A stretch of 64,000 bases of DNA from Planctomycetaceae bacterium (GTDB lineage Bacteria > Planctomycetota > Phycisphaerae > Phycisphaerales > SM1A02): contig JAIXYQ010000015.1 in the NCBI GenBank assembly GCA_027490145.1, forward strand, positions 248,001 to 312,000. Reading direction: 5' to 3'. Position numbers and translations under genes: made by a program. Below are positions 51,992-62,866 of the stretch, piece after piece. Positions within the stretch are counted from its first letter, which is position 1; each line of letters opens with the position of its first letter. The notes beneath the pieces were generated by a model that searched no databases, was not told where the DNA came from, and saw nothing but the letters and a program-made list of their open reading frames with translations.

Positions 51992-52103
51992 TGCGAAACC
52001 GACGAATGGGCGATGGGGGCTCATTGACAACCTCGGAAAACGCAGGCAAAACCACCAAGTCATCGAAGACGTGGTGCCAACAGTGGTGGCAGGCAGGAGC
52101 GTA

Positions 52104-52735: not shown

Positions 52736-52902
52736 GCGGCGCTCCTGTGATGTGCCGCGCCACCCCATTTCGAAAGGGGTTTCTGCGCGACAGTGTGGTG
52801 GTCAGATCTATCTAGGCGCGACCGCCGCGCTCCCTACCGATCTTGCAGAGTGAAATATGGTTTTTCCTCATGTGTGGCGAGTCGTGGTCGCTACATACGA
52901 GG

Positions 52903-53379
52903 ATGAGAACGATCCCCTACAACTTCAAAGTCCACGACCACTACCGCGAGTGGGTTTCTACTGTTCCGTGGAACCATGGCGTAACAATTCAACCTGGCAA
53001 TCCGCGATACGCCGCCGATGACATGGAGTGCTTGGCGGACATGAGCATCACCAGTCTCGGTAAGACCGTGCGTGTACGAAACGGGCTGTGGATTTGCTTT
53101 ATTCGTGAGCAGTCACGCGACAGGCGCTTGTGGCATCTTCACGGACTAGTCCACCTGAAGTCGCGGAAACGGGCTTCGTGGCTCCTGCGGCAGGGCGAGA
53201 GCCGACTGCTGGAGGTCTGCCGCGAGTTCGCGGAGGCGCGTGGCGGTGGTGCAGGAGATCCGTCTGTTCACCTGTTCACCGAAGGATCAGCAGGTGTGGC
53301 GAAGTGGATGGACTACATGAACAAGGAAACGTTTCGGGACACGAACAGTGATCGCTGGCTGTTTGGTCGCCCACAGTAA
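52903..53379 (+). CDS. Candidate HUH endonuclease (Rep-like)
   Basis: The 158-residue product shows the three motifs of single-strand HUH nucleases in order: a hydrophobic T strand (WNHGVTIQPG), the HUH motif in RLWHLHGLVHL, and a catalytic Tyr helix in AKWMDYMNKETF (Y-x-x-K). This is the layout of rolling-circle replication initiators and small relaxases, which nick DNA and stay attached through the Tyr. A long hairpin begins 7 nt after the stop and could be its target. Start: ATG 52903 has GAGG directly before it; in-frame ATG 52870 is also possible. Lower G+C than the chromosome. Confidence 0.6.
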   Translation: MRTIPYNFKVHDHYREWVSTVPWNHGVTIQPGNPRYAADDMECLADMSITSLGKTVRVRNGLWICFIREQSRDRRLWHLHGLVHLKSRKRASWLLRQGESRLLEVCREFAEARGGGAGDPSVHLFTEGSAGVAKWMDYMNKETFRDTNSDRWLFGRPQ

Positions 53380-54176: not shown

Positions 54177-54929
54177 TCAGTTGCTCCCAGGCTTTTCTGG
54201 ATCCGCTTCGATACCCAAAGTGGGGTTTCCGTCAGAATCAGTTGCTATGCGGATCCGCTCCTCGCCCTTCTGATCCAGAAGCGTGATGCCTGCGACACCG
54301 GCTGAATAGGTTTCCATCTCGACCCGATCCTTGCCTTCCCGGTCCAAAAGCGTGATGCCTGCGACACCGCTTGAACGGGTTTCCATCTCGACCCGAGGCT
54401 TGCCTTCCTGATCCAAAATCGTGATGCCTGCACTAAGGTCTGGAATGTCACGAACAATGACCCGCGATTGTCCCTCTTGATCGAGGATAGTGATGCCTGC
54501 CATGCCGAATTGATCGGTATTCATTCCAACTCGCACTTTGCCTCCCTGATCCGCCATGATGAGGAATGCATTTCCTTCGGGATCTGTCCCCGATGCGACT
54601 CGGAGTTCACCCTTCTCATCAAGCACCGTGATGCCTGCCACTCCGTCGTCCATCATCGCCAATTTGATTCGCAGTCGTCCTTCCGTGTCCAAGATGCAAA
54701 CACAAGCCGCCTCATCATTCATGCCAATCTGGATCCGATCACGCCCTTCACTATCCGTGACGTGAAGCCCAGAACAGTGCAGCGTGCCGAACACCGCATT
54801 CGGCGTTTCATTATCTGGTGGATTGACTGCCGAGTGCATTGCCCCGTCGCGTCGTAGCCGCTCGACCTGGTCGCGGAGTGATTGCACTTCTGCCTCCAGG
54901 ATTGCCAGTCGCTCTTCTATTGCGCTCAT
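54177..54929 (-). CDS. Coiled-coil plus 23-residue beta-repeat protein
   Basis: The 250-residue product has an N-terminal coiled coil (MSAIEERLAILEAEVQSLRDQVERLRRD) and then tandem repeats with the pattern G-V-A-G-I-T-L-L-D-x-E-G-K-x-R-V-E-M-E-T, about eight copies diverging towards the N-terminus. The last copies repeat at DNA level too: 54280-54348 and 54349-54417 are near-identical 69-bp units. This looks like a trimeric beta-helical or phage-fibre-like stalk, which is inference. GGAG lies 8 nt before the ATG. Confidence 0.7.
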   Translation of the reverse strand: MSAIEERLAILEAEVQSLRDQVERLRRDGAMHSAVNPPDNETPNAVFGTLHCSGLHVTDSEGRDRIQIGMNDEAACVCILDTEGRLRIKLAMMDDGVAGITVLDEKGELRVASGTDPEGNAFLIMADQGGKVRVGMNTDQFGMAGITILDQEGQSRVIVRDIPDLSAGITILDQEGKPRVEMETRSSGVAGITLLDREGKDRVEMETYSAGVAGITLLDQKGEERIRIATDSDGNPTLGIEADPEKPGSN

Positions 54930-55086
54930 GCTCAGTCTCCGTGCGAGAAGGGGTTTGTAGTAGGGTAGTGCAGTCGACTTAGCGTCGGAGGAGTGGGAGT
55001 CGTGCTCACGCTTTCGAGAGCGTGCATGGTCGGGCTGCGCTTTAGAGCCGAATCGGGCTAAACCAAAAGGTTGGGTGCGGATTGGT

Positions 55087-55644
55087 TCAGTTGAGTCTTC
55101 TGTAGATTCCAACCAAGACCATCGCCAGCCCGCCGACAATCGCCCCCACAAACACCTTGTAGTAAGAGGTGGCGATTGCTGCTGAAGCGGCAGTTGCAAG
55201 CACGCCGATCAGGGCGACTGCCATGCCAGTCAACATCAACTTTGGTGCACCGCGATACTGCTCTGCCACGACATTTGATCGGTATGCGGCGACTGCCGCT
55301 TCAGCGTGCTCACGGCTGATTCCATTGGCAATCAGTTTACGGACAGTCTTCTCCGCCTTGAGTCCGTCCCGAATCCAAGATTCTGCCTCCTGAATCGCGT
55401 CATCGCGCTGTCGTTCGGTCAGTCCTGAAAACGGACCCTCCGTTACGAGGGTAGTGTTCCACAAGAAGACTCGCATCGCAGCCGCTGATTGAGTCGGAGA
55501 CAAGCCGTCTGCCAGCAGTCGCTGCATTGCTCCTTCTGGCGAACACCCCTCCGCTGTCCATGTTCTGATTTTCATCAGCGTGGCTTGAATCTCGCGGTCC
55601 GTCATCCCCGCGAAGGGACCGATTTTGTGAACCGTATCGTCCAT
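55087..55644 (-). CDS. Two-repeat protein with C-terminal membrane anchor
   Basis: The 185-residue product contains an internal duplication of ~55 residues: IGPFAGMTDREIQATLMKIRTWTAEGCSPEGAMQRLLADGLSPTQSAAAM and EGPFSGLTERQRDDAIQEAESWIRDGLKAEKTVRKLIANGISREHAEAAV. Two transmembrane helices follow (LMLTGMAVALIGVLATAASAAIA and VFVGAIVGGLAMVLVGIY). The helical repeats would face the cytoplasm. No family is recognised. AAGGG lies 9 nt before ATG 55644; the frame is open upstream but the extra part looks non-coding. Confidence 0.65.
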   Translation of the reverse strand: MDDTVHKIGPFAGMTDREIQATLMKIRTWTAEGCSPEGAMQRLLADGLSPTQSAAAMRVFLWNTTLVTEGPFSGLTERQRDDAIQEAESWIRDGLKAEKTVRKLIANGISREHAEAAVAAYRSNVVAEQYRGAPKLMLTGMAVALIGVLATAASAAIATSYYKVFVGAIVGGLAMVLVGIYRRLN

Positions 55645-56279: not shown

Positions 56280-56669
56280 TCAACACCCCTTACGAAGCCA
56301 GCGCGCCATTTCGCCGTCAACAGCGGATTCAATCAGCGCAGCCAGCGTTGCCCCTTGCGGCACACCTGCGGCAATTGCTTCCCGTCGCGCCCTTTCGCCA
56401 GCCAGCCGTGCCGACTGAATCATGGCAGCCGACAATGACTGGAACTGATCCAACTGGTCTTCAGTAAACAGGGAACCGTTCCAGTCGGGTGACGCGGTGA
56501 GTTCCGCAGCCTGCTGCCGTCCCTCTGCGGCAAACTGGGCAATGACGGCATCCCACGCGCCTTCATAGGCTTCGCCCTCGTCTGCGCCGCGTTCCTGAAG
56601 GCTGGCGAACTCACGGCGGAATGTGGTGATGTCGGGGGTGGACTTGGGGGGCTTGCGTTGGTTGGTCAT
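56280..56669 (-). CDS. Hypothetical soluble protein
   Basis: The 129-residue product is helical and Ala/Glu/Gln rich (TFRREFASLQERGADEGEAYEGAWDAVIAQFAAEGRQQAAEL, FTEDQLDQFQSLSAAMIQSARLAGERARREAIAAG). AGGAG lies 8 nt before its ATG. It is divergent from the nuclease-helicase gene (98-bp gap) and might be related to it in regulation or function, but no family is recognised. Confidence 0.6.
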   Translation of the reverse strand: MTNQRKPPKSTPDITTFRREFASLQERGADEGEAYEGAWDAVIAQFAAEGRQQAAELTASPDWNGSLFTEDQLDQFQSLSAAMIQSARLAGERARREAIAAGVPQGATLAALIESAVDGEMARWLRKGC

Positions 56670-56767: not shown

Positions 56768-59700
56768 ATGCGTGATTCGGGGATCGTTGCCAAGTCGCAG
56801 TCGTGGGAGCAGTTCCGCTCCGCAGTCGCCGCGCTTGCGACCACCAAAGCGAAGGGCGATGCCTTTGAGGGGTTGTGTGTCGCCTTCCTTCGCACCGACC
56901 CCCGCTATGTGGCTGAACTGAAATCGGTCTGGCTCCGCCACGAAGTCCCTGCCGAGATCGCCAAGCGGCTGAACCTGCCCTCATCGGACGAGGGGATTGA
57001 CGGCATCGCCCAGACGCACGGCGGCGAGTTCTGGTCGCTCCAGTGCAAGTTCCTGTCGAACCACAAGGCGACCCTGACGAAGAACGCGCTTGACGGCTTC
57101 GCACACCTGTCCTTCACCCATTGCAAGGAGATCACGAAAGCACTCGTCCTGCACACTTCGTCAGCCCCGATCCGCAAGCACAAACTGCTTGGTGTGTCCG
57201 AGATCGGGTTGCGGGAGTTCGAGGGGCTAGACGAAGCGGCATGGGCGGCTATTCGGGTCGCTGCCTCCTCCACCAGCCCCCGTGCCGTCATCCACAAGCC
57301 GCGCCAGCCGCGACCGCATCAGGAAGCCGCTGTCGCAGCGGTCACCGCCCACCTACAGACCCATGATCGTGGTCGGGTGCTGATGGCGTGTGGCTCTGGC
57401 AAGAGCCTGGTCGGGTTTTGGGTGCAGGCTGCGATGGGGGCAAAGCAGGTGGTCGTTGCCGTGCCGAGCCTGTCCCTTCTCAATCAGACCCTGAAGGAGT
57501 GGGCAACGGAGTGGGCGGCACGGGGTGAACGGGTTCGCTACACGGCGGTCTGCGGTGACGAGTCGGCAGCGGATATTGGTGACTCGTTTGTTGAACACGC
57601 CCACGAACTAGGGATCGACACCTACACGGACGAGGCTCGGATCGCGGAACGGTTGAAGGCTCTTCGCGGCGAACACCATGTGGTGTTCACGACCTACCAG
57701 AGCAGCCATCGTCTTGCCGCCGCTGTGAAGGCGGCGAAGCACGCGTTCGATCTCGGGATCCTTGACGAGGCACACAAGACGGTCGGCGAGCGGGGCGGGC
57801 GATTCACCACGCTGCTCCATCCGAAAGTTCCCATCCGTAAGCGAATCGCCATGACTGCTACGGAGCGGGTGCTGAAGGGTTCCGATGACCGCGTGCTGTC
57901 GATGGATGACCCGAAGGTGTATGGCGAGGTCGCGTTCTCCTACACCTTCAAGGCAGCCATCGCGGACGGTGTGATCTGTGACTACAAGGTGATCACGCTT
58001 GCCGTCTCCGAGTCACGGATGCGGGAACTCATTTCCGCGAACGCGCACCTTCGCTTGCACGCGAGGGGGAAAGAGGACAGGCTCCGCCTTGCACAAGACT
58101 TGGCGGCAGGCGAACTGCTGGCGAAGGCGAACAGCGAACACGGGGTGCGCCACGCCATCTCGTTCCATCGGAGCATCGCTGCGGCTTCGGCGTTCGCAGA
58201 TCAATGGGAGTCTGTGGATCGGATGGTGAAGCGGCGTGTTCACAGCACGGCATTCCATGTGTCAAGCAAAGTTCCGACTGGGCGGCGAGTGGAACTGCTG
58301 CGTGAGTTCCGTGAGTCGCCCAGTGCGGTCATCACGAACGCCCGCTGCCTCACGGAAGGCGTGGATGTCCCGAATGTAGATGCGGTGCTGTTCGCGGATC
58401 CTCGCCGCAGCACCATCGACATCGTGCAGGCTGTGGGTCGCACGCTACGCACTAACCCGAAGAATCCCGACAAGATTGGCTATGTGCTGCTGCCCGTACT
58501 GGTAGAAGACGGACAGACGGTAGACGAGTTCTTGGAAAGCAGCGCGTTCAAGGAGGTGGGTCGCGTGCTTGCGGTGCTGTCAACACACGATGAGCGGATC
58601 GCGGAGGAGTTTCGCACCGTTGAGGGTGGTGGAAAGCACAACACCCGTGAATCTCGCATCGTGTTCGGCGGAGATGTGCCTGTCGGCGTTCGGTTGAGCG
58701 CGGAGGAGTTCGCGGAGCGATGTGGTGCGCGGGTGTGGCAGCGGGTTGCGCGGGCGAACTGGCGACCGTTTGAGGACGCACGGGAGTTCGCACGCTCTTT
58801 GAAACTCACGTGCGGACGCGAATGGCGACTCTACTGCGATGGCATGATGGCGGGACACAGACCCAAGCCAGCGGACATTCCATCCGCTCCTTGGTCAACC
58901 TACGCGGGCAAGGGATGGGCAGGTGATGGCGATTGGCTTGGCACTTTCACCATCGCTCCAATGCGTCGTGTCTACCGCCCCTATAAGGAAGCCGAGCGAT
59001 TTGCTGTGGAATTGAGACTCACAGGACAGAGGCAATGGCAGGCTTGGTGTAGAGGTGAAATCCCGAGTTTGCCCGACCGCCCGTCAGATATTCCTACGAA
59101 TCCCCAAACTACCTACCGTGGCAAAGGCTGGAAGAACTGGGGTATCTGGTTCGGAACGAATGAGGTTGCGACATATCTGAGGGAGTACAGATCGTTTGAG
59201 GCTGCACGGGAGTTTGCGCGCTCTTTGAGGCTTCGTGGTCAAGCAGAGTGGTACGCATTTGCGGCAGGCAAACTCAAGGGGCATGGGGTACTACCAAAGG
59301 ACATACCTTCGTCGCCGCACCAGCAGTACAAGGGTAAGGGCTGGTTGGGCTACGGCGATTGGTTGGGCACAGGGGCGGTTGCGCCCTCCCTCAGGCGGTA
59401 TCGCCCCTTTGCGGCTGCCCGAGACTTCGTGCGGAGCCTTGGGCTTCGGTCATCAACCGAATGGCAGCCTTACTGCCAAGGCAAACTCCCAGATTTGCCG
59501 CCTTTGCCTGCAGACATTCCATCAAATCCGCAGGTGGTGTACGCAAATGATGGATGGGAGGGTCACTCCAACTGGATAGGAAGTAAGCGAGTGCCCTATT
59601 CCAAGCGTGCATACAGATCGTTCGTAGATGCGAGAGAGTTTGCGAGGAGTCTCGGTCTGAAGTCGAAGGACGATTGGATTGGGTTTGTCCGTGGTGGCAG

Positions 59701-59833
59701 GAGTGGAATCTCTCGGCTGCCCGTGGATGTACCAGCAGATCCCCGTTACTACTACGCGGACACGGGCTGGCTCGGCTGGTCGGATTGGCTTGGAAATGGT
59801 CGTAAGCCTCGAAGCGACTCCCCGAAGAGGTGA
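56768..59833 (+). CDS. Restriction-type nuclease / SF2 helicase fusion with five C-terminal repeats
   Basis: The 1021-residue product has an N-terminal PD-(D/E)XK nuclease domain of the Mrr type (GDAFEGLCVAFL, EGIDGIA..LQCKF; Glu34, Asp78, Gln92, Lys94). Residues ~175-600 are an SF2 helicase: ACGSGKSLVG (Walker A), DEAHKT, MTATER and QAVGRTLR. From ~663 to the end there are five ~70-residue repeats (YRPF-x-x-AR-x-FARSLGL-x-x-x-x-W ... DIPSNP-x-x-x-Y-x-x-KGW-x-x-x-DWLG), which I recognise as the phage-integrase repeat unit type. It is probably a single-gene anti-phage restriction enzyme. ATG 56768 follows TAATCT (56756-56761) by 6 nt, so it is leaderless-type. Confidence 0.85.
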   Translation: MRDSGIVAKSQSWEQFRSAVAALATTKAKGDAFEGLCVAFLRTDPRYVAELKSVWLRHEVPAEIAKRLNLPSSDEGIDGIAQTHGGEFWSLQCKFLSNHKATLTKNALDGFAHLSFTHCKEITKALVLHTSSAPIRKHKLLGVSEIGLREFEGLDEAAWAAIRVAASSTSPRAVIHKPRQPRPHQEAAVAAVTAHLQTHDRGRVLMACGSGKSLVGFWVQAAMGAKQVVVAVPSLSLLNQTLKEWATEWAARGERVRYTAVCGDESAADIGDSFVEHAHELGIDTYTDEARIAERLKALRGEHHVVFTTYQSSHRLAAAVKAAKHAFDLGILDEAHKTVGERGGRFTTLLHPKVPIRKRIAMTATERVLKGSDDRVLSMDDPKVYGEVAFSYTFKAAIADGVICDYKVITLAVSESRMRELISANAHLRLHARGKEDRLRLAQDLAAGELLAKANSEHGVRHAISFHRSIAAASAFADQWESVDRMVKRRVHSTAFHVSSKVPTGRRVELLREFRESPSAVITNARCLTEGVDVPNVDAVLFADPRRSTIDIVQAVGRTLRTNPKNPDKIGYVLLPVLVEDGQTVDEFLESSAFKEVGRVLAVLSTHDERIAEEFRTVEGGGKHNTRESRIVFGGDVPVGVRLSAEEFAERCGARVWQRVARANWRPFEDAREFARSLKLTCGREWRLYCDGMMAGHRPKPADIPSAPWSTYAGKGWAGDGDWLGTFTIAPMRRVYRPYKEAERFAVELRLTGQRQWQAWCRGEIPSLPDRPSDIPTNPQTTYRGKGWKNWGIWFGTNEVATYLREYRSFEAAREFARSLRLRGQAEWYAFAAGKLKGHGVLPKDIPSSPHQQYKGKGWLGYGDWLGTGAVAPSLRRYRPFAAARDFVRSLGLRSSTEWQPYCQGKLPDLPPLPADIPSNPQVVYANDGWEGHSNWIGSKRVPYSKRAYRSFVDAREFARSLGLKSKDDWIGFVRGGRSGISRLPVDVPADPRYYYADTGWLGWSDWLGNGRKPRSDSPKR

Positions 59834-61804: not shown

Positions 61805-62866
61805 ATGGACAGCAAGAGCCTTGCCCGAGCCTCCACGCCTGCCGCCCCGATTGCCCTCCAGCAGGGTCGCAGCCTCTCCGATAGCGACCTCGCTGCCCTT
61901 GCCGCGAGCAGCCCTGCTGCCGCCTACGTGCGTTCGCTGACAACGGATGCGGGTCGCGCCTCAACCATTCAAGCCATCTCCCTTGCTGCTGATCATCTCG
62001 CTCCCCAGTTTCTGCCTCTCAGTCGTGGCAGGGGTCGGGGTGGGAACGGCGCGTTGAGGTTCACGCTGGCGTGCACGCTGCCCTGGCACACGCTGCAAGC
62101 GGATCGCCTCGCGGAACTCCGTGCCTCCCTTGTGCGTTCGGGTGCTGCCGCAGCCACCACGAACAAGGTTCTCGCCGCCGTAAAGGGGGTCTTGCAGCAA
62201 TGCTGGCAGCAGGGATCCCTTGACGGAGACTCGTTTGCCCGTGCGAGGGCAAGCCTGAAGTCAGTTCGAGGCTCCACGCTGCCGAAGGGCAGGCATCTTC
62301 CAAAGGTAGAGGTCGCAAGGCTGTTCCGAGCCATCTCGAAGACCCCGAACCCCGCTGCTGCCCGCGATGCCGCCCTTCTCGCCCTTCTGTGCATCGGGCT
62401 ACGCCGTGCCGAGGTCGCGGGGCTGCGGGTCACGGACTACGACCGTGCCAACGGCAGACTCGTGGTGCGCGGGAAGGGTGGCAAGGAACGCGCCGTGTGG
62501 CTCACCAACGGCGCGAAGTCGGCGGTTGAAGACTGGCTGGAGATTCGTGGAGAAGCAGTCAGCGAGTGGCTGCTTCTCCAGGTGAACAAGGGCGGCAAGA
62601 TCGTGCCTGCTGGCATCACGCCGCAGTCCGTGTATGCGGCGCTACTCAAGAGGGCAGAGCAGGCAGGGCTCGGTGTCTCTCCCCATGATTTTCGGCGCAC
62701 CTTCATCGGGGAAGCCCTGACCGCAGGGGTGGATGTGGTGACCGTGCAGCACCTTGCAGGGCACGCATCGCCTACGACTACGGCGCGTTACGACAGGCGC
62801 GGCGATGAGATCAAGAAGAGCGCGATGGCTGTGGTGAGTGTGCCGTATCTGCCGAGTGCGGTCTGA
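61805..62866 (+). CDS. Tyrosine recombinase (integrase)
   Basis: The 353-residue product has a ~170-residue N-terminal core-binding part and a catalytic domain with all key residues: GLRRAEVAGLRVTDYD (Arg), GKGGKERAVWL (Lys), SPHDFRRTFIGEAL (H-x-x-R), VQHLAGHASPTTTARYDRRG (His and nucleophile Tyr). It should cut and rejoin DNA at the island's attachment sites. Upstream is an AT-rich stretch and TACGAT (61793-61798), 6 nt before the ATG, so the start is leaderless-type. It lies at the right end of the island, next to repeats at 62884-62925. Confidence 0.92.
   Translation: MDSKSLARASTPAAPIALQQGRSLSDSDLAALAASSPAAAYVRSLTTDAGRASTIQAISLAADHLAPQFLPLSRGRGRGGNGALRFTLACTLPWHTLQADRLAELRASLVRSGAAAATTNKVLAAVKGVLQQCWQQGSLDGDSFARARASLKSVRGSTLPKGRHLPKVEVARLFRAISKTPNPAAARDAALLALLCIGLRRAEVAGLRVTDYDRANGRLVVRGKGGKERAVWLTNGAKSAVEDWLEIRGEAVSEWLLLQVNKGGKIVPAGITPQSVYAALLKRAEQAGLGVSPHDFRRTFIGEALTAGVDVVTVQHLAGHASPTTTARYDRRGDEIKKSAMAVVSVPYLPSAV

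What the first reader, a model, noticed from the sequence alone, without database searches (positions are those of the whole stretch)
56768..59833. Single-gene nuclease-helicase with five integrase-type repeats: candidate new defence protein
A PD-(D/E)XK Mrr-like nuclease is fused to an SF2 helicase and, where related helicases carry helicase-associated (HA) repeats, this one carries five repeats of the phage-integrase repeat-unit type. All nuclease and helicase motifs are intact. It lies on an integrase-bearing island with its own leaderless-type promoter and a small divergent partner gene. No methylase is present, so it would act as a modification-dependent or self-sufficient restriction enzyme.
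Basis: partly seen in the sequence, partly recalled or inferred. Interest (0 to 1): 0.72.

Follow-up and report, generated by a model that had tools for sequence, protein, structure and literature searches.

The report
Repeat-guided nuclease-helicase on mobile island
This gene encodes one protein that joins a DNA-cutting domain, a DNA motor and five copies of a module otherwise found in DNA-integrating enzymes; it sits on a mobile island, its relatives sit among the cargo of phage-satellite-like elements, and it is most likely an anti-virus DNA cutter built like a restriction enzyme but with a different target-reading part.

Summary
Window 56768-59833 encodes an intact 1021-aa protein: Mrr-type nuclease, SF2 helicase, five 71-aa repeats. 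Pfam's INT_rpt model does not match the repeats directly, but profile comparison and an intermediate protein tie them to the INT_rpt arrays of gamma-mobile-trio VPA1269 integrases. They are not HA repeats.

The core resembles type ISP restriction enzymes (LlaGI, LlaBIII), but coupler, methylase and ISP specificity domain are absent, and the helicase branches outside the type ISP clade. It joins a well-supported clade with a second planctomycete-type protein (nine repeats) and six proteins on AT-rich viral contigs. On at least three of those contigs the gene lies near a tyrosine integrase or a replication ATPase; one copy lies beside a PADLOC phage-defence candidate.

Its own host is a 13.5-kb island in tRNA-Val(CAC); att repeats and an empty site in a sister species were found. 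Best reading: a methylase-free restriction-like defence nuclease whose repeat array reads DNA. Motor, nuclease, island and family are shown by homology; DNA reading and defence are inferred. The promoter and 'partner gene' claims are unsupported. New variant of a known kind.

The parts
56768..59833 (+). Mrr-type nuclease + SF2 helicase + 5 INT_rpt-like repeats, 1021 aa
   Evidence: open frame; Pfam; LlaBIII in PDB E 2.8e-55
56852..57163 (+). Mrr-type PD-(D/E)XK nuclease domain (aa 29-132; E34, D78, Q92-x-K94)
   Evidence: Pfam Mrr_cat_2; motif positions; aligned with LlaBIII
57290..58603 (+). SF2 helicase core (aa 175-612), all motifs intact
   Evidence: Pfam ResIII and Helicase_C; LlaBIII/LlaGI alignment; motifs
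58604..58759 (+). linker between helicase and array (aa 613-664)
   Evidence: alignment of relatives
58760..58972 (+). repeat 1 (aa 665-735)
58973..59185 (+). repeat 2 (aa 736-806)
59186..59398 (+). repeat 3 (aa 807-877)
59399..59611 (+). repeat 4 (aa 878-948)
59612..59830 (+). repeat 5 (aa 949-1021)
52005..52019 (.). left attachment repeat of the island; its partner is at window-frame 65524-65538, beyond the window, in the 3' end of tRNA-Val(CAC)
   Evidence: 15-bp exact repeat; tRNA; empty site in sister species L088
61805..62866 (+). tyrosine recombinase of the island (XerC-like)
   Evidence: PF00589 E 3.3e-25; phrog_1 integrase
56280..56669 (-). divergent 129-aa ORF, function unknown, no relatives found; membership in a system with the nuclease is unproven

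Best explanation
A single-chain, methylase-free, restriction-like defence nuclease carried as cargo by a tRNA-integrated mobile element. Proposed order of events: (1) the C-terminal array of five INT_rpt modules binds incoming phage or plasmid DNA (inferred); (2) the SF2 motor hydrolyses ATP and moves along double-stranded DNA as the homologous motor of type ISP enzymes does (inferred from homology; motifs intact); (3) the N-terminal Mrr-type nuclease cuts when the motor is halted or meets another complex (inferred from LlaGI/LlaBIII). Self-DNA is spared without a methylase either because the composite site read by five modules is rare, because two converging complexes are needed, or because the array prefers modified or unusual DNA; the data do not choose between these. 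Shown here: domain order, intact motifs, island borders, empty site, the clade with viral-contig proteins, and their cargo position. Not shown: DNA binding, cutting, protection.
For: Nuclease-helicase core homologous to LlaBIII (E 2.8e-55) and LlaGI (1.7e-43); best PADLOC match is the front half of type IIG/ISP enzymes (304 bits, profile 17-650 of 1646). Six viral-contig proteins of the same Mrr-SF2-INT_rpt layout form a 100%-supported clade with this protein and L024. In those contigs the gene lies behind a shared left border (divergent ~150-aa gene, small lipoprotein-like gene); the genes between border and nuclease differ between contigs, and two related contigs have other genes at that border. 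Neighbours include a 310-aa protein matching PADLOC PDC-S02 at 1.3e-147, a Cas4-like PD-(D/E)XK protein, and integrases. Phage satellites are known to carry antiviral hotspots (PMC9122126, abstract; PMC10803314). INT_rpt-like arrays recur with DNA-acting enzymes: tyrosine recombinases, an HNH-type phage endonuclease, SF2 helicases, which fits a DNA-targeting role. The array is basic (pI 9.9). The island is mobile and absent from a sister species.
Against: No phenotype or biochemistry. Within the island no known defence gene was found. TtrA (SLP2), a helicase-HA relative, is linked to conjugation, not defence (PMC8743542). L107-L109 relatives lack the nuclease. The other planctomycete-type relative (L024) has no integrase or known defence gene in the 8 kb seen downstream, and its upstream side is missing. 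Stand-alone repeat genes sit in ordinary chromosomal settings. No solved structure resembles the repeat pair, so DNA binding rests on context alone.
Confidence: 0.6

Rival explanations
1. Transfer or replication helicase of the mobile element. The motor and repeats act on the element's own DNA during excision, replication or transfer, as proposed for TtrA of linear Streptomyces plasmids; the nuclease processes element DNA.
For: TtrA of SLP2 is a helicase-HA relative required for conjugation (PMC8743542); HA relatives are abundant on plasmids; the repeats occur in recombinases; the island carries a possible HUH-type replication ORF.
Against: TtrA lacks the Mrr nuclease and is only 30% identical; the clade members are present in some elements and replaced by unrelated genes at the same border in others; L024 was found without a visible integrase.
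Confidence: 0.15
2. Homing-type or competition nuclease. The array directs the nuclease to a specific site in rival elements or empty attachment sites, favouring spread of the island rather than protecting the cell.
For: The same repeats follow an HNH-type endonuclease in a 485-kb phage; no methylase; mobile location; GIY-YIG-like ORFs, judged by eye, occupy the same border in related element L170.
Against: An ATP-driven motor is unusual for homing enzymes; the island is inserted at a tRNA by its own integrase, so homing is not needed for insertion.
Confidence: 0.12
3. Damage- or structure-sensing abortive system. The helicase detects replicating or broken phage DNA rather than a sequence and releases a general nuclease, as in Hachiman; the repeats only hold DNA.
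For: A nuclease-helicase pair without methylase has such a precedent (PMC12278908, abstract); modelled repeats behave as separate beads rather than a rigid reader (pTM 0.30).
Against: The core is far closer to type ISP enzymes than to any Hachiman model; variable repeat number (5 here, 9 in L024) suggests a changing target reader.
Confidence: 0.13

Closest known systems
Type ISP restriction-modification enzymes (LlaGI, LlaBIII)
   Same: Mrr-type nuclease followed by SF2 motor in one chain; 30-36% identical core
   Different: No ISP_coupler (PF22240), methylase or Type_ISP_C (PF18135); repeats instead; helicase outside the ISP clade
Mrr-SF2-HA proteins of actinobacterial plasmids (Rhodococcus WP_064689746.1)
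   Same: Same order: nuclease, helicase, C-terminal repeat array; 35% identity over aa 16-615
   Different: Eight HA repeats; no sequence relation between HA and these repeats
TtrA (SLP2, Streptomyces lividans)
   Same: Related SF2 core with a repeat array
   Different: No nuclease, HA repeats, role in conjugation (PMC8743542)
VPA1269-family proteins of gamma-mobile-trio elements (INT_rpt + Integrase_2)
   Same: Homologous repeat arrays
   Different: Repeats belong to a recombinase, not a nuclease-motor
PADLOC PbeA
   Same: Related helicase (76.6 bits)
   Different: Match confined to the helicase; not followed further

Membership tests
Type ISP restriction-modification enzyme | Mrr-type nuclease + SF2 motor in one chain | tested here: met
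Type ISP restriction-modification enzyme | ISP coupler domain | tested here: not met
   PF22240 found in type ISP plasmid proteins L092-L094 and L098, not in P0001
Type ISP restriction-modification enzyme | adenine methyltransferase and specificity domain | tested here: not met
   PF18135 and N6_Mtase absent from P0001, present in ISP relatives
Type ISP restriction-modification enzyme | helicase groups within the ISP clade | tested here: not met
   ISP clade 100% without this protein; non-ISP branch 93% in the larger tree
Mrr-SF2-HA helicase | HA (PF03457) repeats | tested here: not met
   no HA match; hhalign to one protein's HA repeats probability 0.3
INT_rpt (PF14882) repeat family | match to the Pfam model above cut-off | tested here: not met
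   no match at E<=10
INT_rpt (PF14882) repeat family | homology to repeats of INT_rpt-positive proteins | tested here: met
   hhalign 99.1, E 1e-18; intermediate L063
Mrr-SF2-INT_rpt family defined here | same architecture and common clade | tested here: met
   seven viral loci and L024 (nuclease end of L024 not sequenced); clade 100%
anti-phage defence system | protection against phage | not testable with these tools
   context only
Type IV (modification-dependent) restriction enzyme | cleaves only modified DNA | not testable with these tools
   no modified-base-reading domain recognised

The most novel reading that the evidence does not exclude
INT_rpt arrays are a general modular DNA-reading domain. 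The number and variable residues of the 71-aa units (positions 19-20, 23, 46, 54 and 56 are among the most variable in P0001 and L024) set the DNA target, and the array has been attached in turn to recombinases, an HNH endonuclease, helicases and this nuclease-motor, so that specificity changes by gain, loss or change of units.
Probability: 0.15. Interest if true: 0.85.

Novelty: new variant of a known kind. Interest (0 to 1): 0.6.

Why it matters
If right, restriction-like enzymes exist in which the methylase and target-recognition half is replaced by a tandem array shared with mobile-element recombinases. That would give a new way to discriminate foreign DNA without methylation, and a repeat family with no solved structural relative found here whose DNA code could be tested directly. 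The viral-contig relatives also point to satellite-like elements as carriers.

Tried and rejected
Direct Pfam INT_rpt assignment: no match and none in 392 phylum genomes, so homology was shown by profile comparison instead. HA homology of the repeats: none seen, but only one protein's HA repeats were used. First scans of viral contigs with the whole protein and with P0001/L024 found nothing; a scan with helicase motifs V-VI did. Repeat alignment A1 could not be used for a contig scan. Tiled overlapping repeats misaligned, so non-overlapping pairs were folded. Foldseek against PDB: nothing. A tree with distant RadD-like outgroups had a very long outgroup branch and was redone without them; the script's 'ISP monophyletic False' line there came from the rooting (one ISP sequence next to the root), the branch separating ISP from non-ISP has support 93. 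Promoter scan: nothing. Relatives of the divergent ORF: none in 20 related genomes or in plasmids.

Full report
CHECK OF THE OBSERVATION. The frame 56768-59833 is open and encodes 1021 aa. Pfam finds Mrr_cat_2, ResIII and Helicase_C, and the catalytic motifs are intact. The last 357 residues are five units of 71 aa in exact register, with 28-54% amino-acid and 39-53% DNA identity to one another. Pfam's INT_rpt model does not match them. They are nevertheless related to that family: a profile of these repeats aligned with the INT_rpt repeats of two VPA1269 proteins of gamma-mobile-trio elements (which Pfam does recognise) gives probability 99.1 and E 1e-18. A third protein, L063, is matched strongly by the repeat model and passes the Pfam cut-off. 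The same test against the HA repeats of one Rhodococcus protein gives nothing.

THE ISLAND. GC falls from about 68% to 55-61% between roughly 52.0 and 65.6 kb in window coordinates, the right end lying beyond the window. A tRNA-Val(CAC) gene lies at 65526-65599, and a 15-bp exact repeat of its 3' end occurs at 52005-52019. In a species of the same genus (G007, locus L088) the left and right flanks are contiguous across an intact tRNA gene: an empty site. The island is therefore an integrated element of about 13.5 kb. It carries two tyrosine recombinases, 61805-62866 and 64162-65580. An ORF at 52843-53379 has HLHGLVH and YMNK motifs that, by eye, resemble an HUH replication protein; no profile supports this. 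No methylase was seen among the island proteins scanned.

RELATIVES. The nuclease-helicase core matches LlaBIII and LlaGI in the PDB and the first 650 positions of PADLOC's 1646-position type IIG restriction profile. Plasmid relatives fall into three kinds: type ISP enzymes with coupler and specificity domains; an Mrr-SF2-HA protein; and SF2-HA helicases without nuclease, including TtrA of SLP2. TtrA is linked to conjugation (PMC8743542). The window protein has none of the ISP-specific domains and its helicase lies outside the ISP clade. In genomes the architecture is rare: none in 150 relatives, and in 392 phylum genomes the repeats occur in 12 but not in this combination outside the window genome. 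One relative, L024, shows 58% identity over the part that can be aligned, and nine repeats; its 5' end is off the contig.

A scan of viral contigs with helicase motifs V-VI gave 57 loci. Seven encode Mrr-SF2-INT_rpt, and three encode SF2-INT_rpt without Mrr; Pfam independently confirms Mrr_cat_2 and helicase in L112 and a weak INT_rpt hit in L107. In a tree of the helicase core, P0001, L024 and six of the viral proteins form a clade with 100% support; the SF2-INT_rpt group joins at 99%. So the window protein belongs to a family of its own, found on AT-rich (about 30% GC) viral contigs as well as in planctomycete-type genomes.

CONTEXT OF THE VIRAL HOMOLOGUES. Several contigs share a border: a divergent gene of about 150 aa and a small lipoprotein-like gene, then a stretch that differs between contigs, then the nuclease-helicase; L114 and L116 have an integrase next to it, and L120 has an AAA ATPase gene upstream. 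Two related contigs that share the border (L166, L170) have unrelated genes there instead; L166 also has a gene that by eye resembles a small terminase subunit. The variable genes include a 310-aa protein matching PADLOC PDC-S02 at 1.3e-147 and Cas4-like and other PD-(D/E)XK proteins. This resembles the accessory-gene hotspots of phage satellites, where defence systems were demonstrated (PMC10803314; PMC9122126, abstract only). That these contigs are satellites is an inference.

THE REPEATS. They also follow an HNH-type endonuclease in a 485-kb phage, precede a helicase in a complete planctomycete-type genome, precede recombinase domains, and occur alone. A model of two repeats folds with confidence (pLDDT 88.9, pTM 0.60) as four short helices per unit and has no PDB match. 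Among viral models the hits are one 309-aa protein, the same length as the Xanthomonas phage XacN1 protein found by sequence, and SF2 helicases of giant viruses (best E 0.029 with the pair, 1.1e-3 with five repeats). Five repeats give pTM 0.30, so their mutual arrangement is not predicted. DNA binding is inferred from the recurring partners and the basic charge, not shown.

MECHANISM. The best-supported proposal is a restriction-like nuclease-motor with a repeat array in place of methylase and specificity domain. Type ISP enzymes cut after two translocating complexes meet (PMC4666363); the same is plausible here. How self-DNA is spared is open.

LIMITS. No experiment; the two proteins closest to each other come from draft genomes; the alignment of distant helicases is moderate; island cargo annotation is poor; the HA comparison used one protein.

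Noticed in passing
L027 4218-5996 (LR745208.1, 485-kb uncultured phage): An HNH-type endonuclease carries five INT_rpt-like repeats at its C-terminus, a possible homing enzyme with an array reader.
   Followed up: partly
L072 5219-7756 (G497): SF2/SNF2-like helicase with three repeats at its N-terminus, followed by a RecD-like helicase gene.
   Followed up: partly
L064 5721-6368 and L068 5215-5865: A stand-alone three-repeat gene lies at the same chromosomal place in two genomes of one family, near genes that look like gltX and a D-Ala-D-Ala carboxypeptidase.
   Followed up: no
BFVD A0A1V0SLK7, A0A2H4UVX6, A0A481YT28, A0A3G4ZSX7: Fold search with the repeats alone returns SF2 helicases of giant viruses; they may carry this repeat or HA repeats of a similar fold.
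   Followed up: no
L117, L121, L126, L136, L158, L161 (viral contigs): A separate group of Mrr-SF2 proteins of about 945 aa with a different, unidentified C-terminal part.
   Followed up: no
window 52843-53379: ORF with HLHGLVH and YMNK motifs that may be an HUH replication protein of the island; no profile match.
   Followed up: partly
window 54177-55199: 340-aa protein with repeated GITILDQEGK-type segments of about 20-25 aa, probably a beta-structured repeat protein.
   Followed up: no
L107-L109 (viral contigs of 58-206 kb): SF2-INT_rpt helicases without nuclease, near genes that by eye look like a clamp-loader ATPase, a UV-damage endonuclease and a macro-domain protein.
   Followed up: no
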